NCBI GenBank assembly: GCA_004524535.1
Contig: SDNY01000025.1
Span: forward strand, 1-37,342
Direction of reading: 5' to 3'
DNA from: Promethearchaeota archaeon
Lineage (GTDB): Archaea > Asgardarchaeota > Lokiarchaeia > Sigyniarchaeales > SOKP01
DNA length: 37,342 nt
Position numbers and translations under genes: made by a program. Numbering within the stretch: the stretch's first letter is position 1; the number at the start of each line of letters is the position of its first letter. This document shows positions 1 through 27,671 of this stretch, one piece after another. Below the pieces are notes generated by a model, which saw only the letters and a program-made list of their open reading frames with translations, was not told the DNA's origin and made no database searches.

Positions 1-1386
<1,386 letters not shown>

Positions 1387-9270: not shown

Positions 9271-9364
9271 AATAAAAAACATTATCATGAAAAATTATTA
9301 CTCCGTATTTTCTTAAAAGCGATAATTTTCTTGTAATTATATAAATTTCTATTGGTTATTTCTT

Positions 9365-10570: not shown

Positions 10571-10860
10571 TTATTAATGAGAAAAGTAAAAAGTACCTTA
10601 TTGAGGAATTATTAGGTTCCAAGGCAAGATTGAAAATATTAAAAACTCTGGCGCTAAATGAAGAATTAAATATCTCATTAATTATTTCTAAAACGAAATT
10701 AAACCATGCTAATGTTTTAAAACATTTAAATTTTTTAAAATCATTTAATTTAATTCAAGAAAAGAAATTTGGCCGGATTAGAATTTATCGATATAAAAAT
10801 GAAAATATTAAAGCAAGGAGTTTAAAGAATTTCATTGAAATTTGGGAAAGCGATGTTTAA
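10567..10860 (+). CDS. Winged-helix transcriptional regulator (ArsR/MarR-like)
   Basis: A 97-aa protein made of one winged helix: GSKARLKILKTLALNEELNI (residues ~17-36), recognition helix SKTKLNHANVLKHLNFLKSF, then the wing LIQEKKFGRIRIYRYKN. No metal-binding cysteines are seen, so it is not a classic metal sensor. It overlaps the orc1/cdc6 stop by 4 nt and the following peptidase gene by a few nt, so all three are probably one transcript. Possible role: local regulation of the operon or of pilus genes; this is inference. Confidence 0.75.
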   Translation: MIINEKSKKYLIEELLGSKARLKILKTLALNEELNISLIISKTKLNHANVLKHLNFLKSFNLIQEKKFGRIRIYRYKNENIKARSLKNFIEIWESDV

Positions 10861-11533
10861 TTTCATGTTATCAATAATATTTGGTATAGATTTTATATTT
10901 ATTGCGATAATTTTAATTTTTTCTCTATATTTCGATTTAAAATTTAGAAGGATTTCGAATAAACATCTTAAAATTTTTTATTTAATTAGTCTAATTCTAA
11001 ATTTTTTAGAATTTTGGATTTTTTATAAAATCTTTTTATTGTTCATTATTTTGAAATTTCTTATTATTATTTTAACATTTCTAATATCTTTACTATTATT
11101 TTCTCTTAAAATTATAGGAGGTGGTGATGGAAAATTAATTATTTTAATATTTTTAACTCATCCAATTAAATATTTGGAATTCGGTTTAGTACTTTTATTC
11201 TTTTTATTATTTTCACTTCTATTTTTTATATTCTTTTTTTCAAACTTCTTAATCAATCATATCGTGAAAAATTCCTATTCATTCGAGATTCTTTTTAGTT
11301 ATAACATTAAGATTTCTGTTTTTAAAAGATTTTATTTGAAAATGTTCTTTAGATTTTTTAATTTATCAGAAATTATAGATTATCAGGGATATAAGAAATC
11401 AATAAAGTCTCAAACGATATTTTATAATAGTATTAAGAAGAAATTACAATTATTTGCTCAATATCAACCACCTCTCGTTATTATGTGTATATTATCCTAT
11501 TACACAATTTTTTTTCTAAAAATAGGATTTTAA
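10853..11533 (+). CDS. Type IV prepilin (preflagellin) peptidase, A24 family
   Basis: A very hydrophobic protein of 226 aa with about six membrane segments. The two catalytic aspartates of A24 peptidases are visible: D28 in LYFDLKFRRIS, and D92 in GGGDGKL (the GxGD motif). These enzymes cleave the signal peptides of archaellins, pilins and related proteins on the cytoplasmic side of the membrane. The frame could extend to TTG 10835 but ATG 10853, overlapping the previous stop, is the better start. The substrate may be the pilin-like protein encoded at 23861-24238, in a pilus cluster now separated from this gene by the mobile element. Confidence 0.85.
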   Translation: MFNFMLSIIFGIDFIFIAIILIFSLYFDLKFRRISNKHLKIFYLISLILNFLEFWIFYKIFLLFIILKFLIIILTFLISLLLFSLKIIGGGDGKLIILIFLTHPIKYLEFGLVLLFFLLFSLLFFIFFFSNFLINHIVKNSYSFEILFSYNIKISVFKRFYLKMFFRFFNLSEIIDYQGYKKSIKSQTIFYNSIKKKLQLFAQYQPPLVIMCILSYYTIFFLKIGF

Positions 11534-11583
11534 ATAGTTTTTTACAAACTTAAAATTAAAAATATAAAGTAACAAAATTAAAA

Positions 11584-11898
11584 ATGAAAGAGATTATTAC
11601 AAAAGATTCTTTAAACCAATCTATTGAATTGATTTCAGAGTTGAATCTCAACGACGAGGATTATGAAAAAATTTTCGAAAAATTTAAATTAATGTTGAAT
11701 AATTCGGAAATGAAAGAAGCAATTAAAAAATTTTCAGGAGTCAGAGAGATTGAAAAAGAAAATGACTTAAAAACAATTATGAAAACGCTTATAAATAAGA
11801 TAAGATTATCTGACTTAAATCAATTATTAGGAAATATTGTTAAAAACGAGGATCTCATAGATTTTATTCAAGATTTGTTTTTAGAGAAATTAATCTAA
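11584..11898 (+). CDS. Hypothetical helical protein, 104 aa
   Basis: A charged, all-helical product (starts MKEIITKDSLNQSIELISEL). It has repeated short helices with Leu/Ile every three to four residues and no cysteines, membrane segments or known motif. It follows the prepilin peptidase gene by about 50 nt and may be cotranscribed with it, but a TATA-like region between them also allows its own promoter. I do not recognise the family. It is the last host gene before the mobile element. Confidence 0.6.
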   Translation: MKEIITKDSLNQSIELISELNLNDEDYEKIFEKFKLMLNNSEMKEAIKKFSGVREIEKENDLKTIMKTLINKIRLSDLNQLLGNIVKNEDLIDFIQDLFLEKLI

Positions 11899-11920: not shown

Positions 11921-12075
11921 ATCTTAAGCTCATTTTTAATCCAAATAAAAGGTTCTATAATATTAAAGATAAAACTTTATTTTCGTAGTTGTATAATGTT
12001 TTAAAAAAATCAAAATATCATTAGTTTAAACTCAAAATTTTTATCCTAGAGAAAATATCTTAAAGATTCTTCTTC

Positions 12076-12085
12076 TTGCCGATAC
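12076..12085 (+). repeat. Left candidate terminal inverted repeat of the element
   Basis: TTGCCGATAC here matches the reverse complement at 20361-20370, both reading inward. Ten GC-moderate bases shared by two AT-rich flanks is more than expected from composition, but the match does not extend further and no target-site duplication is visible. It lies 42 nt beyond the last element gene. Confidence 0.4.
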
Positions 12086-12127
12086 TCGTATTAGAGATAA
12101 TATGCTTCGCTTCTTTATTATAAGCCA

Positions 12128-12523
12128 CTATTCAATTTTTATTACTTTCATGGTAATAATTCCCTTGTATCGACATATATCACAATAATAATTTATTTTT
12201 GTATTATTATCATAGACATTATTTAATAAATATAGATTTTTTATTCTTCCACAATTAGCACATTTCCCTTTTAAATATACTACTTTTTTAGCCAACTGAT
12301 GTAAGGAAATATTCGGTAATTCCTCTTTATCTGACATTCTATTTGTCCTAATTCTGTATTCTTTATCTGGATATGACATTAATTTTTCCCCCGTTTTCAT
12401 AGAAAAAATCATGATATAATTTTTAAAATATTTATAATATGCCTTTTCATATTCCCCCACCATTTTATTCTTTTCTTTTTCATACACATATATCGTAGTC
12501 ATTAAGGTATCTCTCCAATTCAT
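12128..12523 (-). CDS. Element protein with C-terminal zinc ribbon, 131 aa
   Basis: Last gene of the element's second transcription unit. The C-terminal half has two cysteine pairs, CANC and CDIC, separated by about 25 residues with aromatic and hydrophobic spacing (NLYLLNN), forming a probable zinc ribbon. The N-terminal half is rich in Tyr, Lys and Glu with a region YIMIFSMKTGEKLMSYPDKE. No family recognised; a DNA- or protein-binding role is possible. It begins immediately after the stop of the preceding gene (TAA then ATG), so they are translationally coupled. Start ATG 12523, stop TAG. Confidence 0.6.
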   Translation of the reverse strand: MNWRDTLMTTIYVYEKEKNKMVGEYEKAYYKYFKNYIMIFSMKTGEKLMSYPDKEYRIRTNRMSDKEELPNISLHQLAKKVVYLKGKCANCGRIKNLYLLNNVYDNNTKINYYCDICRYKGIITMKVIKIE

Positions 12524-12748
12524 TTAAGGTATTTCTCCCTTCCATAATTCCCATATTTTCTTATTTTCAATATCTACCATCTTATCCAAGATTTTCGATA
12601 TATTATAATAAGCCGTCTTAATATTTTCTCTTTCTTCCACATTCCCCATAATTCCCACTCTGAAACCATAACTCTGATAATCTTTTGTATATTTCCGATG
12701 CACCGATATTTTTATTTCTTTTACACTTACCACTAACGCATCACCCAC
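12524..12748 (-). CDS. Element hypothetical protein, 74 aa
   Basis: A small mixed alpha/beta protein (MGDALVVSVKEIKISVHRKY at the N terminus, then a helix NIKTAYYNISKILDKMVDIE). No motif is recognised. The start is GTG 12748; an ATG at 12750 is out of frame. It lies between the 55-aa gene and the 131-aa gene in the replication operon, and its stop directly abuts the next start. Reality is supported by the tight operon packing rather than by homology. Confidence 0.5.
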   Translation of the reverse strand: MGDALVVSVKEIKISVHRKYTKDYQSYGFRVGIMGNVEERENIKTAYYNISKILDKMVDIENKKIWELWKGEIP

Positions 12749-12761
12749 ATTTCATAAATCT

Positions 12762-12929
12762 TTATTCTAATAAAGCATTCAATTTTTCGATTAAATCCTT
12801 AACTTCATTTTCTTCAAGATACAACATTAATATATCACCATACATATCTTCGAACAGAATTCTAAACAGCTTTCCATTTACACCAACTTTTATCTTTTCT
12901 ATTTCTTCCATTCCAAATTCTATTGGCAT
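12762..12929 (-). CDS. Element small acidic protein, 55 aa
   Basis: A short frame from ATG 12929 to TAA at 12762. The product begins MPIEFGMEEIEKIKVGVNGK and ends with a helix EVKDLIEKLNALLE. Its ATG overlaps the stop of the second Rep gene (TAATG), the coupling typical of this element. No motif is seen; it is acidic, with a predicted strand-strand-helix order. It may be a small regulator or Rep accessory factor, but this is only context. Confidence 0.5.
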   Translation of the reverse strand: MPIEFGMEEIEKIKVGVNGKLFRILFEDMYGDILMLYLEENEVKDLIEKLNALLE

Positions 12930-13753
12930 TAATATATCACCTTATCATACATTCCTTTTTTGATATTTTTTATTTTTCTAAATAATTTTCTATATCCATT
13001 TTCCCCAAACGAATCATAATACTCTATAAAGTTCTGTTTCGTAAGCAATAATTTACTAATACACTGATTATACTTTACCATATCACTTTTTTTAAACATC
13101 GGCTTTACAACAAATTGATAACCACGCCCAAAATTCCACTTTTTTCCGCTACTTTTGATTTTTCCTAATTTAGTTGGTTTTAGTAAATCCTTATTTACAT
13201 AATATATTAAATTTCTTTTATGCTGACTTCCTAGACCTTTTAATTCTCGTGCATACACAATTCCTTTACCCCATTTTCTATACAACAAATAACCCATCAT
13301 TATTTCCACATCAGATTTTTTATAATTCATATAGTGTGTTCGTGCTTTTTTTATCATTTTAATTATATCAACTTTCCCTGCTTCCCAACCCTTTCTAAAC
13401 ATTTTTTTTGCTATATATTCCTTATTAAATTTTTTTTTAAATTCAAATAACAAATGAAAATGTGATCTCTGATTTTTCGTTCCTTCTTCATATTTCCAGA
13501 AATATTTTCTTCCTTTGTTATATATCGTTTTTGTATCTCTTAAAAAACCTTCCAATTCTTTTCCACTTGCACCCCCCTTCCTTAACATTTCATTTAATGA
13601 TTCCGTATTATAAGTCAATACTACATGCCATTCCCATTTAATTCCCGTTACCCCTATTATTTTATCCCGCATATCCTGTAATGATTTGCTTATTTTAGGA
13701 TATACATCCCAAAACCCTTCTTCATTATATACCGAATTTACTAATTTACTCAT
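12929..13753 (-). CDS. rep: HUH rolling-circle Rep protein with intact motif 3
   Basis: A 274-aa HUH endonuclease candidate. Motif 1-like strand WEWHVVLTYN (residues 40-49), motif 2 QRSHFHLLFEF with the H98-F99-H100 metal pair, and motif 3 YYVNK with Y174/Y175 and K178, followed by the KKWNFGRG tract often found after the active tyrosine. Such proteins nick the origin by covalent attachment to tyrosine and start rolling-circle replication. There is no helicase domain. It overlaps the upstream Rep paralogue by 4 nt (ATGA), and shares with it WKYEEG, HFHLLFE and KGIVYARE. Y174 or Y175 would be the nucleophile; which one is not clear. Confidence 0.8.
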   Translation of the reverse strand: MSKLVNSVYNEEGFWDVYPKISKSLQDMRDKIIGVTGIKWEWHVVLTYNTESLNEMLRKGGASGKELEGFLRDTKTIYNKGRKYFWKYEEGTKNQRSHFHLLFEFKKKFNKEYIAKKMFRKGWEAGKVDIIKMIKKARTHYMNYKKSDVEIMMGYLLYRKWGKGIVYARELKGLGSQHKRNLIYYVNKDLLKPTKLGKIKSSGKKWNFGRGYQFVVKPMFKKSDMVKYNQCISKLLLTKQNFIEYYDSFGENGYRKLFRKIKNIKKGMYDKVIY

Positions 13754-14589
13754 ACCTTCAATTTCACTTGTTTCTTTATTCCTTTTTTCATTTCCATTAA
13801 ATCATTTATCGTTCTTGCATACACTATTTCCCCAGAATAGTCTCTTTTTTCTGTAAAGTATTTTATAAAATTCTCTTTGGTGCTCTCCAAACTTTTTTCC
13901 GCTTCTTCCACCGATACATTTCCCAGCCATTCATATTCCGATTTTTTTTTTACCTTCTTAGTTTTAATTCCCCTCGAAAATCCATATTTTCTTTTATTTG
14001 GTTTAAACCCTTCCGTTCCCGTTCTTTTAGCCACATCTTTTTCCACTTGCTCAATTAATTCTTCCATCGATGTAATTTCCCTTGCATATACAATTCCCTT
14101 ATCCCATAATCTATACATTGAATATCCCATAATTATATCGTTATCCGATTTTTCCTTATTCATTTCATACCCCTTTTGCACTCGAATTACCTCTTTCATA
14201 TCATTTACCCCCATGACTTTTTCTAGTTCCTTTTTTTTCTTGTCTACATCCTTTAACTCAAATAATAAATGAAAGTGTGGTCGCTCTGATTTCCTCCCTT
14301 CTTCATACTTCCAAAAATGTTTTTCCTCAGGAAATATCTTTTTTATTTTTGTTAAATACCCCCGTAATATCGTTGAATCTATTCCCTTTTTTTTCTTTTC
14401 CTCATAGACTTCACTATTCAATGATAATACGACATGATAGTTCCAATTTACCCCTTCACAATTATATATTTTATGTCGCATTCTCATCGTAGATTGAGAA
14501 ATGGTTTTCATTCCCTTCGGAACACGAATATTATAGAATTCCGCTTCTATATGCCATAATAAAGTAATTTCTACAACCGCAGAACTCAT
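13750..14589 (-). CDS. HUH Rep paralogue lacking the motif-3 tyrosine
   Basis: A 279-aa paralogue of the downstream Rep. It keeps motif 1 (WNYHVVLSLN), WKYEEG, motif 2 SERPHFHLLFE with H105-F106-H107, GIVYARE and the KRKYGFSRG tract. Where the sister protein has YYVNKD it has EQVEKD, so both tyrosines are replaced (E180, Q181) while the lysine (K184) is kept. It may bind origin DNA and metal without nicking, act as a regulator, or form a heterodimer with the active Rep. Other tyrosines (GYSMYR) exist in both copies, so a shifted nucleophile cannot be excluded. Start ATG 14589 with a GAGGT ribosome binding site. Confidence 0.78.
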   Translation of the reverse strand: MSSAVVEITLLWHIEAEFYNIRVPKGMKTISQSTMRMRHKIYNCEGVNWNYHVVLSLNSEVYEEKKKKGIDSTILRGYLTKIKKIFPEEKHFWKYEEGRKSERPHFHLLFELKDVDKKKKELEKVMGVNDMKEVIRVQKGYEMNKEKSDNDIIMGYSMYRLWDKGIVYAREITSMEELIEQVEKDVAKRTGTEGFKPNKRKYGFSRGIKTKKVKKKSEYEWLGNVSVEEAEKSLESTKENFIKYFTEKRDYSGEIVYARTINDLMEMKKGIKKQVKLKV

Positions 14590-14592
14590 TTT

Positions 14593-14805
14593 TTACCTCT
14601 TCAGAAATTTTTCAATACTATTTAATTTTACTTTATACCCACATTCAATATTATTGCAATAATAAATAATGTTATTTCCCTCTTTTTTAAGCCATACCCT
14701 TCCTTCTCCACATCGTGGGCATACCTTGTCTGTTTCCTTACATAAATATTTTTGCCCAATTATTCCCATAATTATTGTCATAATTATTCCCATAATTTTT
14801 TCCAT
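14593..14805 (-). CDS. Element zinc ribbon protein, 70 aa
   Basis: Two metal-binding pairs are visible, CPRC and a second CNNIEC, about 22 residues apart with aromatic spacing (IYYCNN), making a probable zinc ribbon at residues 28-60. The N-terminal 20 residues are Met/Ile/Gly-rich and come from three 12-nt tandem repeats in the DNA, so they could be a membrane segment or the true start could be further inside. It lies between the Rep genes and the 139-aa gene, only a few nt from each. Function unknown. Confidence 0.6.
   Translation of the reverse strand: MEKIMGIIMTIIMGIIGQKYLCKETDKVCPRCGEGRVWLKKEGNNIIYYCNNIECGYKVKLNSIEKFLKR
14761..14796. repeat. Three tandem 12-bp repeats inside the zinc ribbon gene
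   Basis: Three consecutive units tattcccataat, tattgtcataat and tattcccataat (plus strand). They encode the IMGI/IMTI/IMGI N terminus of the overlapping 70-aa protein. The copy number may vary between strains by slippage. Confidence 0.8.
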
Positions 14806-15225
14806 CTATTCCATCCACTCAAGCAATCTATTCGTCATATCTCTAATTTTTTCCAATACCCCATAATTATCCTCAATTATCTTACTTGCATAATTACCAT
14901 TTATTTTTTCAAGTTCTTTCATATATTCTACCGTCCTCCAAAAATGTGATACTAACTTATCAATTTTTATCTTATCAGCTACTTGTTTTTCGTCATTCAC
15001 ATCACTTTTTATTGATACCGCTTTTTCAGAAGACCCCGCTTCTCCCATTTTTTCCAATAACCAACTTTTCACTTTAATTATTTGCAATCCTTCTTTATCT
15101 TTCGAATCTACATCTCTTACTTGCGATTTTGGAAACCATTGTTCTCTTCCATCTGGTAATCTAAATAGGAACGCTTTACCTGATTCCGCTACTAAATAAC
15201 ACTCAAAATCTTTAAACTCACTCAT
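14806..15225 (-). CDS. Element protein with phage-like N-terminal beta domain, 139 aa
   Basis: Residues 5-55 are beta-rich (YLVAESGKAFLFRLPDGREQ, then WFPKSQV, ending VKSWLLEKMG). A motif of this kind, with W-x-PKSQ, occurs in small phage proteins often located near recombination or single-strand binding genes, but the link is only a resemblance. The C-terminal 60 residues are helical and charged. It is the first gene of the second element unit, preceded by a GAGGT ribosome binding site and an AT-rich region after a strong T tract. Possible replication-associated role by context. Start ATG 15225. Confidence 0.6.
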   Translation of the reverse strand: MSEFKDFECYLVAESGKAFLFRLPDGREQWFPKSQVRDVDSKDKEGLQIIKVKSWLLEKMGEAGSSEKAVSIKSDVNDEKQVADKIKIDKLVSHFWRTVEYMKELEKINGNYASKIIEDNYGVLEKIRDMTNRLLEWME

Positions 15226-15252
15226 ATTTTTTACCTCTTTTTATTTTATTTT

Positions 15253-15277
15253 AATCTATTTTATTTTATTTTATTTC
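15253..15277 (-). promoter_or_regulatory. Probable promoter region of the element replication unit
   Basis: A run of TTTTA units (period 5) lies between the T-tract terminator and the 139-aa gene and reads AAATAAAATAAAATAAAATA on the minus strand. It could contain the TATA box for the second transcription unit; no single box stands out. Confidence 0.35.
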
Positions 15278-15282
15278 ATTAT

Positions 15283-15297
15283 AAAAAAAAAAAAAAA
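15283..15297 (-). terminator. T15 terminator between the two element transcription units
   Basis: On the minus strand fifteen T residues follow 17 nt after the stop of the 137-aa gene, preceded by the short sequence AGC. This is the longest homopolymer in the element and marks the break between the upstream (structural-looking) and downstream (replication) gene sets. Confidence 0.55.
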
Positions 15298-15313
15298 GCT
15301 GTTAATTAATTTT

Positions 15314-15727
15314 TTAAATTTTTCTTGAATATGCTCTTGAAGATGAACTTTTACTTGTTTTACCCGAATACTCTTTTTCTTCGTAATTTCTACATCGCCA
15401 GCAAGCTGGTTTCGGTTTAAACATTGGTTTACCTTTATCATCTTTTTTTCCAAAAGTTTTATCCCTATGAATCCCTGACATCATCTGGAATTTTATATAA
15501 TCTTTCCCATCATCCTCATATTTCGGGCATGGAACTTTTTCAAGATTATACATTCTACTTATTGGTATACAGAATAAAATATCTTTCCCACCTCTTGCTA
15601 CTCTTACCCAGATAGCTTTTCCAGATTTTACCGCTACAACACTTCCTCCAGCAATACTGAGCATAATTGATTTCCCATCCATCGTCTTATTATACGCACA
15701 TTCATAAATATAAGTTTTTAGCTCCAT
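15314..15727 (-). CDS. Element hypothetical protein with basic Ser-rich tail, 137 aa
   Basis: A predicted beta-rich N-terminal part (ILFCIPISRMY, AIWVRVARGG) and a C-terminal tail rich in Lys and Ser (GKTSKSSSSRAYSRKI). Cysteines include CWRC, perhaps with others making a metal site. I do not recognise the family. A GAGGTGA ribosome binding site lies before ATG 15727. Its leader and start region are almost duplicated inside the first gene of the operon. It is the last gene before the T15 tract. A basic tail of this sort could touch nucleic acid, which is inference. Confidence 0.55.
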   Translation of the reverse strand: MELKTYIYECAYNKTMDGKSIMLSIAGGSVVAVKSGKAIWVRVARGGKDILFCIPISRMYNLEKVPCPKYEDDGKDYIKFQMMSGIHRDKTFGKKDDKGKPMFKPKPACWRCRNYEEKEYSGKTSKSSSSRAYSRKI

Positions 15728-15748
15728 TTTTATATCTTCACCTCGATA
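15715..15748 (-). repeat. 34-nt repeat, copy at the 137-aa gene start
   Basis: This stretch holds the ribosome binding site and start codon of the 137-aa gene (minus strand: TATCGAGGTGA, then ATAAAAATGGAGCTAAAAA). It matches 31 of 34 positions with 19742-19775, about 4 kb away in the same operon. Confidence 0.75.
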
Positions 15749-16074
15749 AATTTATCATGATGCTGATATTCTTTCACTTTATTTATGGTATCTTTCACGA
15801 ATTCATTGATTTGGGCTATCGTATCCGCTTCATTTGACTTTGACATTAATTTCTTAAAGGTAATCTCTAATTCTGTTATCAATACCTTTTTCCATTTTTT
15901 TCCCAGTTTCATGACTCCTCTCAGAAATTTCTTGTTTTGACTTGTTATATCGTATCCTAATTTTATCAACAATCTCTTCCATTTTCTCCTATTTGACAAT
16001 ATCCAAATAAAGAAAGTTATTACCGATGTTAAACTAATCGTTACTATCCCACCACCTATTACAATATCAAACAC
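15730..16074 (-). CDS. Element single-pass membrane protein, 114 aa
   Basis: One N-terminal membrane segment (residues ~2-28, IVTISLTSVITFFIWIL), then a strongly basic stretch (RRKWKRLLIK), then a helical domain to the end. The positive charge after the segment predicts the C terminus in the cytoplasm. The start is GTG 16074, given a clear GAGGTGA ribosome binding site six nt upstream. It is one of three adjacent membrane proteins (with the 212-aa and 140-aa genes), so it may be a virion or membrane-associated component. No family recognised. Confidence 0.6.
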   Translation of the reverse strand: MFDIVIGGGIVTISLTSVITFFIWILSNRRKWKRLLIKLGYDITSQNKKFLRGVMKLGKKWKKVLITELEITFKKLMSKSNEADTIAQINEFVKDTINKVKEYQHHDKFIEVKI

Positions 16075-16085
16075 TTTTTATCACC

Positions 16086-16724
16086 TCAGAACCATCCTTT
16101 TTTCTTCTTCTTCGATTTCTTTGGTTTTGGCAGTTTAAATACCGATTTTACTGTTTTTTTCGCTTTCTTAGAAGAGACTTTTGGTAATGCTATTATACTT
16201 TTTCGCTTCATTGTATTTGCAAATAGTTTTGGCACATCTACTGTTTTTTTCTTAGTCGCCTTTGCGACTGCACTTCCGAAGATACTAAATCTTTTACCAA
16301 CATCCCCGCCCATTTTACTCATACTTTTTGTAATCCCTGACAATCCTTTTGGGATACCTTTTGAGCTCAGCTTCAATCCTTCTCCAATAGTTCCAGAGAA
16401 CATTTTACCTATTCCCCCACCAATATCACTAACTCCACCTGTAATCATTTTCCCAAGACCACTAACTCCACCTGTAACCATTTGTCCAAGTTTACTTAAT
16501 CCACCCATTGCTTGTTGTCCAAGTCCACCTACCCCACCGAAGAAGGTTTCTCCTAATTTGCTAAATCCACCGAACAGTTTACCCCGAAGAACATACCATC
16601 CCACTAACACCGCTCCCGTTACACCCCCGCCTATCAATAGATATTTTATCCATTTCCTTCCCGAACTTCTTTGCCCTTTATTTCCTAACATTCCCATCAT
16701 TTGCGGAACAACAGTCATCGCCAT
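16086..16724 (-). CDS. Glycine-repeat membrane protein, 212 aa
   Basis: Layout: one membrane segment at ~27-45 (LLIGGGVTGAVLVGWYVL), five exact 11-residue repeats at 52-106 (each starting GG, e.g. GGVSGLGKMIT), a Gly/Ser-rich linker, and a Lys-rich C terminus ending KPKKSKKKKKGWF. An 11-residue period fits an 11/3 amphipathic helix lying on a membrane. The basic tail may bind nucleic acid or acidic lipid. I know no named family with this layout. It lies among membrane and beta-rich proteins, so a virion membrane or pore role is plausible but unproven. Ribosome binding site GGTGAT before ATG 16724. Confidence 0.65.
   Translation of the reverse strand: MAMTVVPQMMGMLGNKGQRSSGRKWIKYLLIGGGVTGAVLVGWYVLRGKLFGGFSKLGETFFGGVGGLGQQAMGGLSKLGQMVTGGVSGLGKMITGGVSDIGGGIGKMFSGTIGEGLKLSSKGIPKGLSGITKSMSKMGGDVGKRFSIFGSAVAKATKKKTVDVPKLFANTMKRKSIIALPKVSSKKAKKTVKSVFKLPKPKKSKKKKKGWF
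16407..16571 (-). repeat. Five 33-nt coding repeats (11-residue glycine hendecads)
   Basis: Codons 52-106 of the membrane protein at 16086-16724 repeat with a period of exactly 33 nt: GGFSKLGETFF, GGVGGLGQQAM, GGLSKLGQMVT, GGVSGLGKMIT and GGVSDIGGGIG. The period is kept with no insertion, though residues differ. Confidence 0.8.
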
Positions 16725-16734
16725 TTTTTATCAC

Positions 16735-17157
16735 CTAAATCCTTCGTGAACCGCTACCGCTACGAACTTTTTGTAATTTTGGAACACCTGTTTTTACCGC
16801 ATCAAATAGCTTAGCTCCCCACTTCGTCGCTGTCGCAATATTCTGTAAAAAATCACTGATTCTTTTTAGTAGATCATTATCAATCTGTATCCCAAATGTT
16901 TTAAAGATATTGTCGATAAATTGCATGTTATCTCCTACCGTATCTACCGATTCCGCTAAATCCGAGCTGTTATATACTTTTATTTTATCATACAAAGGAG
17001 CTAACTTTACCCCTACATCAGTCCCTTTATCTATGATAATTAACGCCCCTGCACCAATCAATATCCACGGCAATGCTCTCAACACATTATCTATCGAAAA
17101 AAAATCTGCTAAAAAGTTTTTCGCTGAATCTTCGTCAATCTTTTTTATTTCCGACAT
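16735..17157 (-). CDS. Element single-pass membrane protein, 140 aa
   Basis: A single membrane segment near residues 27-43 (ALPWILIGAGALIIIDKG) flanked by an acidic N terminus (MSEIKKIDEDSAKNFLADFF) and a helical C-terminal part ending VPKLQKVRSGSGSRRI. No signal peptide cleavage site is evident. A GGGGGAT ribosome binding site lies before ATG 17157. It sits between the 247-aa beta-rich protein and the glycine-repeat protein, so it may be a membrane component of the particle. Family unknown. Confidence 0.6.
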   Translation of the reverse strand: MSEIKKIDEDSAKNFLADFFSIDNVLRALPWILIGAGALIIIDKGTDVGVKLAPLYDKIKVYNSSDLAESVDTVGDNMQFIDNIFKTFGIQIDNDLLKRISDFLQNIATATKWGAKLFDAVKTGVPKLQKVRSGSGSRRI

Positions 17158-17167
17158 CTAAATCCCC

Positions 17168-17911
17168 CTATTGTGATGGGCTTAATAGTTCTTCCACTTC
17201 TTCGGGCAAGAATCCTTTTCCTATTACTAATCGGGTATCAATTGCAATACTACCTGAAATACTACCCCCATTCGTGCTAGCCGCACAATATCCTAATCCA
17301 TGCGAACCAATATATAAATATAGAATATCTTTTAGCTTTTCCACACTAAATGACGATTTTATCGGAGTAAATATAGGTATTGAATTCTTCTTAGTCGTAG
17401 TTGCAATAACACCTTCAGCATTGCTTACAAGACCATTTTCTGGAGTAGTTTGATATGCTGAATACGGAAACCCTATACAATCTTCATTATTCCAAGATGT
17501 TATCGGCTTTCTACTTATCCAATATTTCAAATGCCCCCCTTTCAATCTTGCTACTGCATCTGCGGGCTCACTCGACAAACTCATTGTTATTAGTGTTTGC
17601 ACTCCATATATTTCCACTTCTTTACATGGATATTCAATCAACATATCCTGTGGAAATATATCCCCCGACTCGAACTGCACATTCTCTGGATTTTGGTCGT
17701 ATTCATGGAAATGTTCCGCTTGACTCCCTGCACCAATTGACCCCGCAATGGTTATAGTCCTTGTTTTTTTCTCACTTAACGCCACAAAGCTCTCTCCATA
17801 TCGCATGACAAACCTTCCACTTTCTCTTAGAATTACTTCTAGAGCATTACTTGTTATACTTTTCACTAACCCAATGTTTACTATTTTATTATCCCCTGTT
17901 ATAAAAGTCAT
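17168..17911 (-). CDS. Beta-rich element protein, candidate structural protein, 247 aa
   Basis: The largest non-Rep protein of the element. It is predicted mostly beta: many short strands (TRTITIAGSIGAG, VQTLITMSL, LYLYIGSHGLGYC, SISGSIAIDTRLVIG) with Gly/Ser-rich turns and no membrane segment or catalytic motif. Such composition is usual for virion proteins, including single jelly-roll capsid proteins, but also for other beta sandwiches; I cannot assign a fold. It is followed by the membrane protein genes, which fits a capsid-plus-membrane block. Start ATG 17911 with an AGGTGA ribosome binding site. Confidence 0.6.
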   Translation of the reverse strand: MTFITGDNKIVNIGLVKSITSNALEVILRESGRFVMRYGESFVALSEKKTRTITIAGSIGAGSQAEHFHEYDQNPENVQFESGDIFPQDMLIEYPCKEVEIYGVQTLITMSLSSEPADAVARLKGGHLKYWISRKPITSWNNEDCIGFPYSAYQTTPENGLVSNAEGVIATTTKKNSIPIFTPIKSSFSVEKLKDILYLYIGSHGLGYCAASTNGGSISGSIAIDTRLVIGKGFLPEEVEELLSPSQ

Positions 17912-17929
17912 ATTTTTTTTTCACCTGCT

Positions 17930-18118
17930 TCATACATCACTTTTAATTTTTAATAATGGTGATAGGTCTTTACGGTCATTCGTGTTAACATTACTAATGC
18001 TCACCCCTACTTGCGATAATCTATTTTGTTGAGCTTCATCCACGATTATTAACACCCCTATTCTTGCACCGACCACAGTTTTATCGCATTCATGAATAAT
18101 ATATAATATTATTTTCAT
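17930..18118 (-). CDS. Element hypothetical protein, 62 aa
   Basis: Starts MKIILYIIHECDKTVVGARI and continues GVLIIVDEAQQNRLSQVGV. It has two predicted strands then a helix, and no motif beyond one cysteine. Its ATG overlaps the stop of the upstream gene (ATGA), the coupling seen elsewhere in this element, which is the main reason to accept so short a frame. Function unknown. Confidence 0.5.
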   Translation of the reverse strand: MKIILYIIHECDKTVVGARIGVLIIVDEAQQNRLSQVGVSISNVNTNDRKDLSPLLKIKSDV

Positions 18119-18303
18119 GGCAATACTCTATTTTCTACTATTTTTTTTACCGATTCATTCTTTTGTCCACATCGAAAAATCGGTCTTAATTTATCAATTC
18201 GCATTTTCCTTTCTTCCAGCCCTACCTTAATAATAGTTCCTTCACAAAAAGGAAAATTATTCCATCTACATCCTATACAGGTTTCATTTATTTTATTTTC
18301 CAT
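18115..18303 (-). CDS. Element Cys-rich small protein, 62 aa
   Basis: Cysteines at C9, C12, C20 and C45 (CIGC, then FPFCEG and FRCGQK) could bind one metal. The central part is basic (GLEERKMRIDKLRPI). A GGAGGGAT ribosome binding site lies before ATG 18303. It ends in an ATGA overlap with the next gene. One of several small Cys-rich proteins in the element. Function unknown. Confidence 0.55.
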   Translation of the reverse strand: MENKINETCIGCRWNNFPFCEGTIIKVGLEERKMRIDKLRPIFRCGQKNESVKKIVENRVLP

Positions 18304-18308
18304 TTTTT

Positions 18309-18845
18309 CTAATCCCTCCTTTTTTTAAATACCACTTGAATCGTATATACTTCTACCGACCGACCCGCATGATTTAATTTAATTTGCATTGCTACAATAT
18401 CACCAATTTCAAAATTTTCTTTTCTTAATATATAAAGATATTTTTGTCCACCTAATTCCCCACACGCTGGAAATTCTATATCCACATTATTTTCTACATT
18501 TTCCATAGTCCCTTGTTCAGAACCATCAGTCTTACATGCACCGACATTTAACTTCATATTAACCACCCCTCCATTTGCATCTATTCGCATGAACGGAATA
18601 ATCATTTTTATATCAAAGTTGTCATCCCACTGCTTATCTATATATACCGAACATGATATATTAGCTCCTACTACATTCATTACAATTCCCGGCACATACA
18701 TAATTGCTCCATTCAGATAACTTAACGATAAATTTGTCGTAGTAAACGGTGAACCCACAAAACTCAATACTTCTCCCTTTTTACATTGTGGTCTTATTTT
18801 CCCTACTTCTTTTTCATATTGGTCTATTTCCCATTGTTCTGTCAT
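18309..18845 (-). CDS. Beta-rich tandem paralogue B, candidate structural protein, 178 aa
   Basis: Paralogue of the adjacent 179-aa protein. Shared features are the N terminus MTEQWE-DQYEK, GSPF, WD-NFD-K-IIP, D-NGG, DGSE, NVEN-V-I-FP, LR-EN, GDIV and a basic end KKR. The predicted fold is a beta sandwich with no membrane segment. Two tandem copies of a small beta protein recall viruses that use two related single jelly-roll capsid proteins, but no homology to them is visible by eye; a spike or receptor-binding role is equally possible. Start ATG 18845, three nt from the previous stop. Confidence 0.65.
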   Translation of the reverse strand: MTEQWEIDQYEKEVGKIRPQCKKGEVLSFVGSPFTTTNLSLSYLNGAIMYVPGIVMNVVGANISCSVYIDKQWDDNFDIKMIIPFMRIDANGGVVNMKLNVGACKTDGSEQGTMENVENNVDIEFPACGELGGQKYLYILRKENFEIGDIVAMQIKLNHAGRSVEVYTIQVVFKKRRD

Positions 18846-18848
18846 CTT

Positions 18849-19388
18849 TTATTCCCTTTTTTTTTTATAAGTTATTTCCCACGCATATATTCTTACATCC
18901 CTATCACTTTGATTTAATACTATGCCTATTGATACAATATCCCCCTGATGAATATTTTCACTCCGTAGTAAATATTGATATTTTCCAAAACAATTATACC
19001 CCACATCTGGAAATGTTATACCCACTTCATTTTCTACATTATACCCATCATATTCTTCGCTCCCATCTGAGCTATAAGCATATACTCTTAATTTAAATTG
19101 CACACCCCCGCCACCATTAGTATCGTATCTAAAATACGGAATAATCACTTTTACATCAAAATTTTCATCCCATTTTGAATCTACATACATACTTATTCCC
19201 ACGACATCATTTATTTCACTCATTCGTATTTGGTCGCTACACATAGTTGCTCGATAATAGAAAGGTGTCAAAACAGCCGTATTAAATGGAGATCCTACAT
19301 CCATTACAACATCCCCTTTTTCAACGCATGTCGGTTTTATCTTTTTACAAGCTTTTTCGTATTGGTCAAGTTCCCATTGCTCAGTCAT
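18849..19388 (-). CDS. Beta-rich tandem paralogue A, candidate structural protein, 179 aa
   Basis: The upstream member of the pair, about 40 percent identical to the downstream copy by eye, including MTEQWELDQYEK at the N terminus and WDENFDVKVIIP in the middle. The frame is open to ATG 19403, but ATG 19388 gives the N terminus shared with its paralogue and overlaps the preceding 46-aa gene (ATGACTGA), so it is preferred. The region between GSPF and the WD motif is the least conserved, as expected for surface loops. Candidate capsid or spike protein; role is inferred from context. Confidence 0.65.
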   Translation of the reverse strand: MTEQWELDQYEKACKKIKPTCVEKGDVVMDVGSPFNTAVLTPFYYRATMCSDQIRMSEINDVVGISMYVDSKWDENFDVKVIIPYFRYDTNGGGGVQFKLRVYAYSSDGSEEYDGYNVENEVGITFPDVGYNCFGKYQYLLRSENIHQGDIVSIGIVLNQSDRDVRIYAWEITYKKKRE

Positions 19389-19521
19389 TACATGCCTCCA
19401 CATTCCGTATTAAAATCCGTATTATCCCAAACACTTTATTCTTATCCAAAATCTCTGCTTCTTTCCATATATACATTACCGTTTTTTCTATTTCATATTT
19501 CATATCGTCATTTAACTCCAT
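19381..19521 (-). CDS. Element small protein, 46 aa
   Basis: A 46-codon frame from ATG 19521 to TGA at 19381. The product starts MELNDDMKYEIEKTVMYIWK and ends IRNVEACND; it is mostly helical. It fills the space between two better supported genes and its stop overlaps the start of the 179-aa gene by 8 nt, so translational coupling is likely. The element's dense packing is the only evidence; there is no motif. Confidence 0.45.
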   Translation of the reverse strand: MELNDDMKYEIEKTVMYIWKEAEILDKNKVFGIIRILIRNVEACND

Positions 19522-19525
19522 AATG

Positions 19526-19714
19526 CTATAGACCCCCCAATTTCTTTCCACAATATGGGCAGAATTTCATTCCTTCCCCCATAAACTTTACTCCATTTTC
19601 TTTCGCCAAATAATCTACAATCAACATATAATCCACTAATTTTTGCCATTCTTTACACTTACACTTTTTCAATGAGAAGCACATCCATTGTTCACTTATC
19701 TCAGTCTTTTCCAT
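19526..19714 (-). CDS. Element zinc ribbon protein, 62 aa
   Basis: Starts MEKTEISEQWMCFSLKKCKC. Cysteines C12, C18 and C20 come early and a FCPYCGKKL motif closes the protein. The pattern suggests a zinc site formed by the C-terminal CPYC with one or two of the N-terminal residues. Its ATG lies 14 nt inside the end of the upstream gene. Function unknown. Confidence 0.55.
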   Translation of the reverse strand: MEKTEISEQWMCFSLKKCKCKEWQKLVDYMLIVDYLAKENGVKFMGEGMKFCPYCGKKLGGL

Positions 19715-19916
19715 GTTCTTCCACCATCCTTTTTAGCTCCATTTTTAGCTCCATTTTTATACGCTCACCTCGATAGACTCTATATACCTGATACTGAATG
19801 CATTTTTTATACTTACAAAAGCAGTAATATTCATTCTTAAATATTGTCTCACATCCTTCAAAATACGGGCATTCCTCCACTCTTACTTGCTGATTCTCTA
19901 TAATATGATTTTCCAT
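19701..19916 (-). CDS. Element Cys-rich small protein, first gene of the main operon, 71 aa
   Basis: Cysteines occur as CPYFEGC, CFCKYKKC and around, probably binding one or two metals. The C terminus KMELKMELKRMVEEHGKD carries a 12-nt tandem duplication and part of a 34-nt repeat found again at 15715-15748. ATG 19916 follows GAGGG; an in-frame GTG at 19925 is the alternative. The promoter must lie in 19926-20080, which is shared with the divergent gene at 20081. Function unknown. Confidence 0.55.
   Translation of the reverse strand: MENHIIENQQVRVEECPYFEGCETIFKNEYYCFCKYKKCIQYQVYRVYRGERIKMELKMELKRMVEEHGKD
19742..19775 (-). repeat. 34-nt repeat, copy inside the first element gene
   Basis: Minus strand reads TATCGAGGTGA, three differing bases, then TATAAAAATGGAGCTAAAAA, matching 31 of 34 positions with 15715-15748. 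Here the sequence is read through as protein (RGERIKMELK) rather than acting as a leader. Confidence 0.75.
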
Positions 19917-19930
19917 TTCCCTCACTTCTT

Positions 19931-19949
19931 AAAATGTAAGTTCTACGAA
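19931..19949 (-). repeat. Inverted 19-nt motif, left copy (candidate origin or operator)
   Basis: On the minus strand this reads TTCGTAGAACTTACATTTT, matching 16 of 19 positions with TTCGTGAAACTTACATTTC at 20276-20294 on the plus strand. The two copies face opposite ways and bracket the 63-aa divergent gene. This copy is directly upstream of the main operon start. Confidence 0.55.
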
Positions 19950-20080
19950 AAACCTAATAGGAAGTATGAAAATAGGAAAAAAAGGAAATATTTAAAAGGA
20001 AAAAATATCACTTTATAAATTGTTGTGTATTGAAATTATCGACATAATTATAAAAAAAAAAAGATCGTGATGTTTTGTAA

Positions 20081-20272
20081 ATGAATGGTTTTGAATATGA
20101 AACTAAAGATAAGGAAGGATGGGAAACTTTTTATATCGTAGAAGAAATGAAAATAAATTACAAACAATGGAATGAAACATTATATTTAGAAGTTAAATAT
20201 ATAGATGCTGATGGAAATCATTCAGAGAAGGAATTCTTTTTTAAAGAAGATATTAAATTAAAAATATATTAA
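20081..20272 (+). CDS. Divergent small element protein, 63 aa
   Basis: The only plus-strand gene of the element. The product (MNGFEYETKDKEGWETFYIV and on) alternates strands with acidic and aromatic residues (TLYLEVKYIDADGNHSEKEF), so it is probably a small beta protein. No helix-turn-helix is obvious. It is divergent from the main operon over 155 nt containing a 19-nt inverted motif, and a perfect hairpin follows its stop without a gap. Such a position is common for early or regulatory genes, but no function can be assigned. Confidence 0.5.
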   Translation: MNGFEYETKDKEGWETFYIVEEMKINYKQWNETLYLEVKYIDADGNHSEKEFFFKEDIKLKIY

Positions 20273-20302
20273 AAGTTCGTGAAACTTACATTTCACGAAC
20301 TT
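20273..20302. repeat. Perfect 12-bp hairpin with 6-nt loop (candidate rolling-circle origin)
   Basis: AAGTTCGTGAAA (20273-20284), loop CTTACA, TTTCACGAACTT (20291-20302). No T tract follows, so it is not a typical terminator. ACTTAC occurs in the loop region and again just after the right arm (GAACTTACCCCC). The core is repeated in inverted form at 19931-19949. HUH Rep proteins commonly nick in or next to such hairpins, which makes this the best origin candidate in the element. Confidence 0.6.
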
Positions 20303-20337
20303 ACCCCCATATCTTCAGAATACCCTAATAATATCCC

Positions 20338-20359
20338 CCAAATCTCAATTTGGATTTTT
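20338..20359 (+). terminator. Hairpin plus T tract (possible terminator)
   Basis: CCAAAT (20338-20343) pairs with ATTTGG (20348-20353) around CTCA, followed by ATTTTTT. This has the form of a factor-independent terminator and could end the transcript of the 63-aa gene. The 20303-20440 stretch has no gene and shares the G-poor plus strand of the element. Confidence 0.45.
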
Positions 20360-20360
20360 T

Positions 20361-20370
20361 GTATCGGCAA
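20361..20370 (-). repeat. Right candidate terminal inverted repeat of the element
   Basis: GTATCGGCAA is the exact reverse complement of TTGCCGATAC at 12076-12085. Composition of the plus strand changes from C-rich, G-poor to plain AT-rich shortly after this point (about 20440), which agrees with an element boundary nearby. Confidence 0.4.
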
Positions 20371-20526
20371 AAAAGACTGCCTAAAAAATCCTACACTCTC
20401 ATATTAATAACCCACACTTATACACTTTATATTATCACAAATAAATACTTGTCAAATTAAGATTACTAATGTTGAGATGTGTGCACAATATAATAATTAG
20501 TAATTATAATTAATTATATATATAAT

Positions 20527-20615
20527 ATTACTAGTAATTTATTTAATTATATTATTTAATTATTTATTTATTATTTAATTACTAGTAATTAATTTAATTA
20601 TATTATTTAATTATT
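20527..20615. repeat. AT-only direct repeats with ATTACTAGTAAT palindromes
   Basis: Two near-identical units of about 38 nt start at 20527 and 20578 (51-nt spacing), each opening with the perfect palindrome ATTACTAGTAAT and continuing with TTAATTATATTATTTAATTA. The surrounding 20480-20700 is almost pure A and T. This could be a DNA unwinding or partition site, a remnant of integration, or simple low-complexity sequence. No gene lies between 20303 and 20793. Confidence 0.6.
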
Positions 20616-20793
20616 AATATTAATTAACAATTATAGATATATTACATATAATAATTGTGAACTTCAATATTACTATTAATTTATTATTGCTATAATTTAT
20701 ATTGAAACCATCTGTAAAGATATAAAATTTTAAATTTAAAAATTTCTATGTTATTAATGAAATTATATAATTCCCTAATGTGAAAAATAAAAA

Positions 20794-21186
20794 ATGGAGA
20801 TTGAAAAGAAGAGAGAGACTTCGTGGAAAATCCAATTAAAAAAAACAGATGAATATATAGAAATAACTTCGGTTGAAATTAGTGGTGAAGTAAGACAAAT
20901 TAAGCTTGGGCTTATAAATAAAGATAAATCTATTAGAGTTGAAATGAGTAAAGAAGATTTTTTCAAATTTCTTTCTCTAATATCTGCATTTAAGGATGTA
21001 GTTATTGGTGAGGAGTCAATATTAGTAGAAAGTGAATTAAATATCGTTGAAGATAAACCAGAAAAAATTCAAGAGTATTCACAAATAGAAGATGATCTCT
21101 ATCAAATAAATTCTAAACCTTCTGAAGAATCTATGGAAAATAACGATACAGAAGAATTAAATCCTGAAGAATGGGATCCTTGGTAA
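20794..21186 (+). CDS. Hypothetical acidic-tail protein, 130 aa
   Basis: First host-like gene after the element. Residues 1-75 are mixed strands and helix (KIQLKKTDEYIEITSVEISG, RVEMSKEDFFKFLSLISAF). Residues 90-130 form a very acidic, probably disordered tail ending EELNPEEWDPW. No known domain; composition matches the host. It is convergent with the V4R-domain gene, 10 nt apart. It could be an adaptor that binds a partner with its tail, but that is speculation. Confidence 0.6.
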   Translation: MEIEKKRETSWKIQLKKTDEYIEITSVEISGEVRQIKLGLINKDKSIRVEMSKEDFFKFLSLISAFKDVVIGEESILVESELNIVEDKPEKIQEYSQIEDDLYQINSKPSEESMENNDTEELNPEEWDPW

Positions 21187-21196
21187 TTAAACCTAT

Positions 21197-21697
21197 TTAA
21201 CTTATTTTACTGATGTTATATTCACAAATTTTTAAATTTGAATTTTCAAGACAACAATTAGGTTCAGATACAGATACTTGATATAATGCGTACTCCCCAA
21301 AACCCGATAATAACCCATTAATGAAATAACAAAAATATTTTGATTTGTTTTCTAATACGGATGAGATATTATGACGAAGTTCTATAACAATTAAATCCTC
21401 TGATATTTTTCTAGGAACAAAAAGCCCCCATCCTAGATTATTTATTAAATTACAAAATTGATTTACTAAATCATTTAAAGTTTTTGGTTTTAAATGTTCT
21501 TCCCAGTTTTGTATTAATGTCCAACCTGCTTTTTTCCCTAGCCATACTAATAAAGATTTTACACCTTCACCATAAATAGACGATAAAATATCAATTAATT
21601 GGGGGGGGAAAAAAACGAAACGATCGTTAAATAATTGAAATATACCATTATTATATTTTAAACCTTTTAATTTTAAGATTCTCATAATTATAATCAT
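21197..21697 (-). CDS. V4R (4-vinyl reductase) domain protein
   Basis: A 166-aa protein. The C-terminal half has the V4R pattern: FINGLLSGFGEYALYQVSVS, followed by E-PNCCLENSNLKICEYNI, with the paired cysteines typical of the domain's small-molecule or metal site. The N-terminal part (VFFPPQLIDILSSIYGEGVK) also fits the family. V4R domains bind small ligands such as hydrocarbons or tetrapyrrole intermediates and often sense or deliver them. The ligand cannot be predicted. Two ATG starts are possible (21697 and 21685). Single gene, convergent with the acidic protein. Confidence 0.7.
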   Translation of the reverse strand: MIIIMRILKLKGLKYNNGIFQLFNDRFVFFPPQLIDILSSIYGEGVKSLLVWLGKKAGWTLIQNWEEHLKPKTLNDLVNQFCNLINNLGWGLFVPRKISEDLIVIELRHNISSVLENKSKYFCYFINGLLSGFGEYALYQVSVSEPNCCLENSNLKICEYNISKIS

Positions 21698-22009
21698 TAA
21701 TTTTTTATTATTTAATCTTTTCTAGATGAGATTATTTCATTTATATTAGGTATATTCATTTAACAAATAATTCTTTAAGAATTTATAAAAATCCGTCCAA
21801 TATATCAATTTGGAAATGAAAATTAAGTATAAGGCTCTATAAATATATCTATTTGATACGAAATATCCGCGGTTAAAATAAAACCAATTTGAAATTGAAA
21901 ATTTTAATATTACTAATGCCTTTATACACTTTATTTTTATAAACTAATAATCAATAAAATTAATCCGAAATTTGAGAACTTTAAATATATGAAAAAAAAG
22001 ATAGATTGA
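21698..22009. other. Intergenic region, no gene recognised
   Basis: About 310 nt of AT-rich sequence between the V4R gene and the small membrane protein. It must hold two divergent promoters; a TATA-like ctttaaatatatg lies about 25 nt before the ATG at 22010. Two loosely similar AATTTGAAAT-type stretches (near 21812 and 21888) are noted but not convincing. Confidence 0.4.
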
Positions 22010-22309: not shown

Positions 22310-22321
22310 AGCATCTGGCTT

Positions 22322-23848: not shown

Positions 23849-23860
23849 TAGATTTTTTTC

Positions 23861-24238: not shown

Positions 24239-24254
24239 AAAAACTTTTTATAGT

Positions 24255-27649: not shown

Positions 27650-27671
27650 TTAATAATTCTAATGTGATTTT

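What the first reader, a model, noticed from the sequence alone, without database searches (positions are those of the whole stretch)
12076..20370. Undescribed integrated rolling-circle, virus-like element in an Asgard chromosome
Twenty small genes, two HUH Reps, beta-rich paralogues, three membrane proteins and several Cys-rich proteins, tightly packed and in a different strand-composition regime from the host. There is no integrase, packaging ATPase, polymerase or tail gene. Asgard viruses I know (tailed, double-jelly-roll tailless, and spindle-shaped groups) do not match this gene set. A pleomorphic or membrane-containing virus without packaging motor, or a plasmid, are the options.
Basis: partly seen in the sequence, partly recalled or inferred. 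Interest (0 to 1): 0.85.

Follow-up and report, generated by a model that had tools for sequence, protein, structure and literature searches.

The report
Small rolling-circle provirus of Lokiarchaea
An 8.3-kb block of about 20 tightly packed foreign genes sits in a Lokiarchaeal chromosome where eight related genomes have nothing; it looks like the integrated genome of a small, tailless, probably membrane-containing virus that copies itself by rolling-circle replication, a kind not found in the papers I could search on viruses of these archaeal relatives of eukaryotes.

Summary
Between about 12,076 and 20,370 lie 19 minus-strand genes plus one plus-strand ORF, 98% coding, with coding-strand GC skew near +0.5 against about +0.15 for host genes. 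Eight related genomes keep both flanks in synteny with only a short intergenic gap there, so this is an insertion. A diverged sister element in Lokiarchaeota Loki_b31 shares g8-g12 in order (g8 is 65% identical), Rep, g18, g13 and g1. Partial or decayed relatives occur in three other places. Rep gene g16 reaches Pfam REP_ORF2-G2P above cutoff; its paralogue g15 lacks the motif-III tyrosine. The conserved protein g8 is the capsid candidate: a low-confidence beta-sandwich model whose fold matches are mostly jelly-roll virus capsids. g4/g5 model as carbohydrate-binding jelly-rolls, and the sister has a phage tail-fibre/collar protein instead, which points to exchangeable receptor-binding proteins. 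Three single-pass membrane proteins follow g8. No P-loop, integrase or polymerase was found. Best reading: provirus of an undescribed small rolling-circle virus group of Lokiarchaeia, FLiP/corticovirus-like in layout but not a tested member. Two corrections: the strand bias follows transcription, not replication, and ssDNA is not shown. Capsid identity and circular form are inferred.

The parts
12076..20370 (.). Whole integrated element (about 8.3 kb); outer limits from empty-site comparison about 11,985 to 20,700
   Evidence: 10-bp inverted TTGCCGATAC at both ends; composition shift; empty site in 8 relatives
12076..12085 (+). Left 10-bp terminal inverted repeat TTGCCGATAC
   Evidence: not found in sister elements
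20361..20370 (-). Right 10-bp terminal inverted repeat
20273..20302 (.). 12-6-12 palindrome/hairpin AAGTTCGTGAAA-N6-TTTCACGAACTT; equivalents at the same border of L014 (10567-10596) and L016 (12630-12659); candidate origin/end structure, or a copy of a host-family palindrome
   Evidence: (z = -7.9); host-wide occurrence
20303..20380 (.). Structured C-rich non-coding stretch (two more small hairpins), candidate rolling-circle origin region (inferred)
   Evidence: 20260-20480, z = -4.9
20081..20272 (+). g20, 63 aa, unknown; element-like coding-strand skew +0.53
19701..19925 (-). g1, 74 aa Cys-rich; partial homologue in L014:10289-10558
19526..19714 (-). g2, 62 aa, zinc-ribbon-like
   Evidence: PF13240 3.6e-4, below cutoff
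19381..19551 (-). g3, 56 aa, unknown
18849..19403 (-). g4, 184 aa beta-rich paralogue of g5; candidate receptor-binding/spike protein
18309..18845 (-). g5, 178 aa; N-terminal helix plus jelly-roll similar to carbohydrate-binding modules and phage tailspike domains
   Evidence: (pLDDT 59, pTM 0.58)
18115..18303 (-). g6, 62 aa, Cys-rich
17930..18118 (-). g7, 62 aa, unknown
17168..17911 (-). g8, 247 aa; most conserved protein, candidate major capsid protein (jelly-roll-like)
   Evidence: 65% identical in L014; strong purifying selection; model and fold matches, low confidence
16735..17157 (-). g9, 140 aa, one TM; homologue in L014 in the same position (38%)
16086..16724 (-). g10, 212 aa, N-terminal TM and very basic tail (net charge +36); candidate membrane protein contacting DNA
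15730..16074 (-). g11, 114 aa, N-terminal TM; positional homologue in L014 (28%)
15314..15727 (-). g12, 137 aa, Cys-containing; positional homologues in L014, L015, L016
14806..15225 (-). g13, 139 aa; N-terminal domain shared with phage family phrog_8389 and with the C-terminal part of L014:4977-5708
14593..14805 (-). g14, 70 aa zinc-ribbon protein with hydrophobic N-terminus
13750..14589 (-). g15, 279 aa Rep paralogue: HUH motif kept (HFH), motif-III Tyr absent; probably non-nicking partner
12929..13753 (-). g16, 274 aa rolling-circle Rep endonuclease, HUH (HFH) and YVNK motif III
12762..12929 (-). g17, 55 aa, unknown
12524..12748 (-). g18, 74 aa; domain shared with L014 and L015 elements
12128..12523 (-). 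g19, 131 aa, two CxxC pairs

Best explanation
A provirus of an undescribed group of small (about 8 kb) tailless viruses of Lokiarchaeia. Rep g16 nicks an origin, probably in the hairpin-bearing non-coding stretch by g20, and drives rolling-circle replication; g15 is a related, probably non-nicking partner. One long minus-strand operon makes the virion: receptor-binding jelly-roll proteins g4/g5, capsid protein g8, and small membrane proteins g9-g11 (g10 with a strongly basic tail that could bind the genome), giving an icosahedral, probably membrane-containing particle assembled without a packaging ATPase. Integration used no encoded integrase, so it is Rep- or host-mediated. SHOWN: insertion with empty sites; conserved gene block in a second element; Rep family and motifs; TM segments; tail-fibre-type protein in the sister. 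INFERRED: capsid role of g8, spike role of g4/g5, membrane virion, origin position, integration route, ability to leave the chromosome.
For: Insertion: flanks 9326-11895 and 20791-28460 are collinear in 8 genomes with only about 160-225 bp between them. Rep: PF23343 1.1e-6, 4 of 5 homologues match; HUH and YxxK. Sister element L014: g8 65%, g9 38%, and g10, g11, g12 in the same order, plus Rep, g18, g13 and g1 relatives. g8 dN/dS < 0.11. Foldseek for g8: most of the top 50 PDB hits and the named BFVD hits are jelly-roll capsids of picorna-like and CRESS viruses, whereas g5, also a jelly-roll, goes to CBMs and phage tailspikes/tail fibres, an internal contrast. In the sister the spike slot holds a tail-collar protein (phrog_8469 4.3e-8; Synechococcus phage S-SKS1 tail collar fibre 2e-8). 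All genes intact, coding density 0.98.
Against: g8 model: pLDDT 45.5, pTM 0.47, TM-scores about 0.2; no sequence match to any capsid family. No circular or virion-derived relative in IMG/VR, phage or plasmid collections. Structural module in only 2 of 228 Asgard genomes. The sister contig abuts bacterial-like DNA and may be partly chimeric. The two 10-bp terminal repeats are not shared by the other elements.
Confidence: 0.72

Rival explanations
1. An integrated rolling-circle plasmid (or plasmid-derived element) whose membrane and beta-rich proteins serve surface attachment, conjugation or vesicle transfer, not a virion.
For: HUH Rep alone defines the replication module; no sequence-level capsid match; no virion-fraction relative found.
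Against: No relaxase, partition, conjugation ATPase or toxin-antitoxin gene was recognised; the sister has a phage tail-fibre/collar protein; g8 fold matches are capsid-enriched; the layout of one strand with conserved structural block then Rep matches small tailless viruses.
Confidence: 0.17
2. A pleomorphic, enveloped (pleolipovirus-like) virus: membrane proteins g9-g11 form the vesicle and g4/g5 the spikes; g8 is not a shell protein.
For: HUH Rep, small genome, several small membrane proteins, no packaging motor.
Against: No large TM-anchored spike; the most conserved product g8 is a soluble beta-rich protein; no pleolipovirus match in Pfam/PHROGs.
Confidence: 0.06
3. A true member of a known tailless family (Finnlakeviridae/FLiP group, Corticoviridae/Autolykiviridae, or the Lokiarchaeal Skuldviridae) too diverged for sequence detection.
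For: Size, single transcription direction, RCR Rep, internal-membrane-type proteins and, as in FLiP, no packaging ATPase.
Against: Profile comparison of g8 to FLiP MCP gives probability 0.2% and of the Rep set to FLiP Rep 0.1%; g8 has 247 aa, short for a double jelly-roll; no ATPase, unlike corticoviruses.
Confidence: 0.15
4. A host gene island or genomic peculiarity, not mobile.
For: Intact in a chromosome contig; only one copy in this genome.
Against: Eight empty sites, different composition, Rep genes, sister elements at other loci in other genera.
Confidence: 0.02

Closest known systems
Finnlakeviridae (Flavobacterium phage FLiP) and FLiP group of Yutin et al. 2018
   Same: About 9 kb, about 34% GC, 16 genes in one direction, structural block then Rep near the 3' end, internal membrane proteins, rolling-circle Rep, no packaging ATPase (PMC7654751, PMC5894146)
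   Different: Archaeal host; no MCP or Rep match by profile comparison; Rep about 275 aa of the PF23343 type versus a 447-aa M13-like Rep; no lytic transglycosylase; found integrated
Corticoviridae (PM2) and relatives
   Same: About 10 kb tailless membrane virus with rolling-circle Rep, small MCP and several small membrane proteins (own knowledge)
   Different: No packaging ATPase here; no sequence match; fold of g8 unresolved
Skuldviridae / Huginn virus (Odin group) of Asgard archaea
   Same: Small tailless icosahedral viruses of Asgard archaea; Odin group also lacks a packaging ATPase (PMC5894146, PMC9246712)
   Different: They carry double jelly-roll MCPs found by sequence search; Tamarit et al. 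report no further Asgard DJR MCPs in their search; the original Skuldviridae paper was not readable here; no match to this element
Microviridae/Inoviridae-type Rep (Pfam PF23343 REP_ORF2-G2P)
   Same: Rep g16 above curated cutoff
   Different: Only the Rep is shared; no microviral or inoviral structural or Zot-like gene
Wyrdviridae / Muninn virus and Verdandiviridae of Asgard archaea
   Same: Same host group
   Different: No His1-like spindle MCP, protein-primed PolB, HK97 capsid, terminase or tail genes detected
Charybdis elements of Poseidoniales (PMC12324425)
   Same: Small archaeal virus-like elements with beta-sandwich hallmark proteins and a variable receptor-binding locus
   Different: 4.6 kb, different hallmark fold, other archaeal phylum; not compared by sequence here

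Membership tests
Mobile element integrated in the chromosome | Empty, syntenic site in relatives | tested here: met
   8 of 8 relatives examined
Mobile element integrated in the chromosome | Defined ends / target duplication | tested here: inconclusive
   10-bp terminal inverted repeat present, no target duplication found, intergenic region too diverged
HUH rolling-circle Rep (PF23343) | Family profile above cutoff | tested here: met
   g16 29.3 bits vs 27.8; g15 below cutoff
HUH rolling-circle Rep (PF23343) | HUH motif and catalytic Tyr (YxxK) | tested here: met
   g16 HFH and YVNK; g15 HFH but QVEK
Finnlakeviridae (FLiP) | FLiP-type double jelly-roll MCP | tested here: not met
   hhalign A1 vs FLiP MCP probability 0.2%; fold of g8 unresolved, so distant relation not excluded
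Finnlakeviridae (FLiP) | M13-like Rep homologous to FLiP CDS15 | tested here: not met
   hhalign probability 0.1%
Finnlakeviridae (FLiP) | Circular ssDNA genome in virion, internal membrane | not testable with these tools
   needs particles
Corticoviridae (PM2) | Packaging ATPase | tested here: not met
   No P-loop or ATPase match
Skuldviridae (Asgard DJR viruses) | DJR MCP homologous to Skuldviridae | not tested
   No reference sequence identified in the held collections; g8 had no match in the phage collection
Caudoviricetes / Verdandiviridae | HK97 MCP, terminase, portal, tail | tested here: not met
   No such family in Pfam/PHROGs/NCBIfam scans
Pleolipoviridae | Large TM-anchored spike protein plus internal membrane protein | tested here: not met
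   No protein over 280 aa; TM proteins are 114-212 aa
Virus in general | Capsid/virion protein | tested here: inconclusive
   g8 capsid-like fold matches from a low-confidence model; tail-collar protein in sister element

The most novel reading that the evidence does not exclude
The first virus group of Asgard archaea with a rolling-circle, possibly single-stranded DNA, genome and a new capsid lineage (g8) in a membrane-containing particle without packaging motor, with receptor-binding proteins exchangeable with tailed phages.
Probability: 0.35. Interest if true: 0.87.

Novelty: new variant of a known kind. Interest (0 to 1): 0.72.

Why it matters
Described Asgard viruses fall into tailed, double jelly-roll and spindle-shaped groups. 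[quoted passage not shown] It bears directly on whether small rolling-circle (CRESS-like) viruses with jelly-roll capsids circulated in the archaeal ancestors of eukaryotes. The element is intact, and a sister copy is available for comparison, so the capsid claim can be tested by ordinary protein expression.

Tried and rejected
Host-gene island: rejected by the empty sites. ssDNA strand asymmetry as the source of GC skew: rejected because skew follows gene orientation in the sister and FLiP itself has a skew of only about 0.1. Xer/dif-type integration at the border palindrome: considered, because arms and 6-bp spacer are constant in three elements; but the same palindrome with a variable N6 occurs at up to 10 intergenic loci in many family genomes and is kept at orthologous positions, so it is not an element-only att site and no second copy borders the insert. 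CRISPR spacer targeting: the two short own-genome matches are low-complexity AT. Relatedness of g8 to FLiP MCP, to g4/g5 or to the 206-aa L016 protein: no support. Relatives in viral contigs, phages and plasmids by Rep, g8, g9 and g5: none. The G045 Rep hit is spurious, overlapping a GNAT-like ORF. Sister MAG G003 (96% identical) could not be used because its contigs end at window 9333 and resume at 27896. The original Skuldviridae paper was not held.
Full report
WHAT IS THERE. The window is contig 76 of a 3.66-Mb, 99% complete archaeal genome. Its relatives are Lokiarchaea: the closest named record holding a homologue is 'Candidatus Lokiarchaeota archaeon Loki_b31'. Between 12,128 and 19,925 all 19 genes read on the minus strand, most gaps are under 20 bp, and coding density is 0.979. 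A small plus-strand ORF (20081-20272) with the same composition follows. GC rises from about 0.20 outside to 0.26-0.38 inside, and coding-strand GC skew is 0.29-0.68 for every element gene against a mean near 0.15 for 14 host genes.

IT IS AN INSERTION. The flanking genes (9326-11895 and 20791-28460) are collinear in eight relatives, one of the same genus and seven of other genera of the family. In all of them the gene left of the insert abuts the gene right of it with a gap of about 160-225 bp. The intergenic DNA is too diverged to give the junction to the base. Its 8-mer core occurs nowhere else in the window, and a match of that kind appeared in 0 of 2000 resampled flank pairs; the criterion was set after seeing it. 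I therefore accept 12,076-20,370 as the likely ends, with 11,985-20,700 as safe outer limits. No target duplication or tRNA site was found.

RELATED ELEMENTS. A sister lies in G052:C18 (L014, about 2.4-10.6 kb). It holds g8 (65%), g9 (38%), g10, g11 and g12 in the same order, then relatives of g18 and g13, a Rep of 375 aa with a zinc-ribbon insert, and g1. A third copy, cut by a contig end, is in G048 (L015, 1-3.1 kb). A compact 2.8-kb relative with Rep, zinc ribbons and a 206-aa beta-rich protein is in G001 (L016, 9.8-12.6 kb). A decayed Rep fragment is in G052:C35. Among 228 Asgard genomes only 2 have g8 or g9 and 5 have the Rep. Nothing was found in IMG/VR, phage or plasmid collections. These tests of presence are sequence-limited: IMG/VR scans need short exact peptide seeds.

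REPLICATION. g16 reaches PF23343 REP_ORF2-G2P above cutoff, and four of five homologues match it. The alignment shows the HUH motif (HFH/HYH) in all five and YxxK in g16, L014 and L015. In g15 the Tyr is replaced (QVEK), so g15 probably cannot nick in the usual way. Both are intact, and their divergence (dN/dS 0.31) suggests a maintained pair. The non-coding stretch around 20,260-20,480 folds far better than shuffled DNA (z = -4.9; its main hairpin -7.9). Structured non-coding ends are also seen in L015 (-5.7) and L016 (-6.1), though L014's right end is only -1.3. I infer that the origin lies there.

VIRION. g8 is the best conserved protein and under strong purifying selection. Its AlphaFold model from two sequences is poor (pLDDT 45.5, pTM 0.47) but mostly beta. 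Its fold matches are mostly jelly-roll capsids of picorna-like and CRESS viruses, with TM-scores only about 0.2; this is suggestive, not proof. The paralogues g4/g5 model better (pLDDT 59, core over 70) as an N-terminal helix plus a jelly-roll close to carbohydrate-binding modules and phage tailspike/tail-fibre domains, TM 0.4-0.5. That g5, also a jelly-roll, does not pull out capsids gives the g8 result some contrast. In the sister element the corresponding place upstream of g8 (on the opposite strand) is taken by proteins of the tail-fibre/collar type (phrog_8469 4.3e-8; cyanophage tail collar fibre 2e-8). A locus that swaps carbohydrate-binding and tail-fibre proteins is what receptor-binding genes of viruses look like. 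g9, g10 and g11 each have one transmembrane segment, as do their L014 counterparts; g10 carries a net charge of +36. No P-loop protein is present.

HOW IT LIKELY WORKS. Rep nicks the origin and rolling-circle synthesis produces the genome; the minus-strand operon produces capsid, membrane and receptor-binding proteins; DNA is taken up by co-assembly, perhaps through basic g10, as proposed for FLiP and Odin-group viruses that lack a packaging ATPase (PMC5894146). Integration must be Rep-mediated or host-mediated. Only the insertion, the Rep, the TM segments, the conserved module and the tail-fibre match are shown; the rest is inference.

COMPARISON. In layout it is closest to FLiP: 9.2 kb, 16 genes in one direction, MCP-centred block, Rep near the end, internal membrane, no ATPase (PMC7654751). 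It is not a tested member: neither MCP nor Rep shows relation in profile comparison. Known Asgard viruses (Huginn/Skuld, Muninn/Wyrd, tailed) carry hallmark genes that are absent here (PMC9246712; PMC10989744). A 2026 survey of archaeal rolling-circle Reps (Rep-Arvir, DUF7845) found a single unverified Asgard homologue of another Rep family (PMC13107129). I found no description of this element in the searched literature; the original Skuldviridae paper and most subscription journals could not be read.

CORRECTION TO THE STRAND-COMPOSITION ARGUMENT. In L014 the plus-strand genes have + strand skew near +0.5 and the minus-strand genes near -0.5, so the purine-rich strand is the coding strand. 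It is a mark of foreign origin, not of a packaged single strand.

VERDICT. A real, intact, mobile, virus-like element of a group not described in what I could search; virus more likely than plasmid; ssDNA and capsid identity open. Interest 0.72.

Noticed in passing
Loci L073-L091 and window 20276-20299: A palindrome TTCGTGAAA-N6-TTTCACGAA with constant arms and variable 6-bp centre occurs (at most 1 mismatch) in 59 of 97 relatives, up to 10 per genome, almost never in the reversed control; mostly intergenic and sometimes kept at orthologous positions. In this 99% complete genome the element's copy is the only one. Could be a regulator operator, structured RNA or recombination site; unexplained.
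   Followed up: partly
L016:9832-12660 (G001:C3): Compact 2.8-kb relative with an HUH Rep, zinc-ribbon proteins and one 206-aa beta-rich protein, bordered by the same palindrome; possibly a minimal Rep-plus-capsid element or a deletion derivative.
   Followed up: partly
L029:930-1870 (G052:C35): Decayed copy (Rep C-terminus and zinc-ribbon gene) next to Ras-like small GTPase genes, showing past insertions in the same genome.
   Followed up: partly
L014:1-2190 (NJBI01000011.1 end): Bacterial-looking sugar transferase, glycosyltransferase and epimerase genes (48% GC) abut the sister element; probably a chimeric assembly end.
   Followed up: no
L014:3314-4441 and L015:1794-2900: Sister Reps carry a zinc-ribbon inserted between the FWKYEEG block and the HUH motif, absent from g15/g16.
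   Followed up: no
window 9365-11898 and 20794-23848: The insert splits a conserved host cluster that includes what looks like an Orc1/Cdc6-type AAA protein, a prepilin-peptidase-like membrane protein and a TadC-like pilus protein (names from reading, not tested).
   Followed up: no
window 1-1500: GC of 0.47-0.54, far above the rest of the window (0.20-0.35); possibly an rRNA gene or other unusual sequence at the contig end.
   Followed up: no
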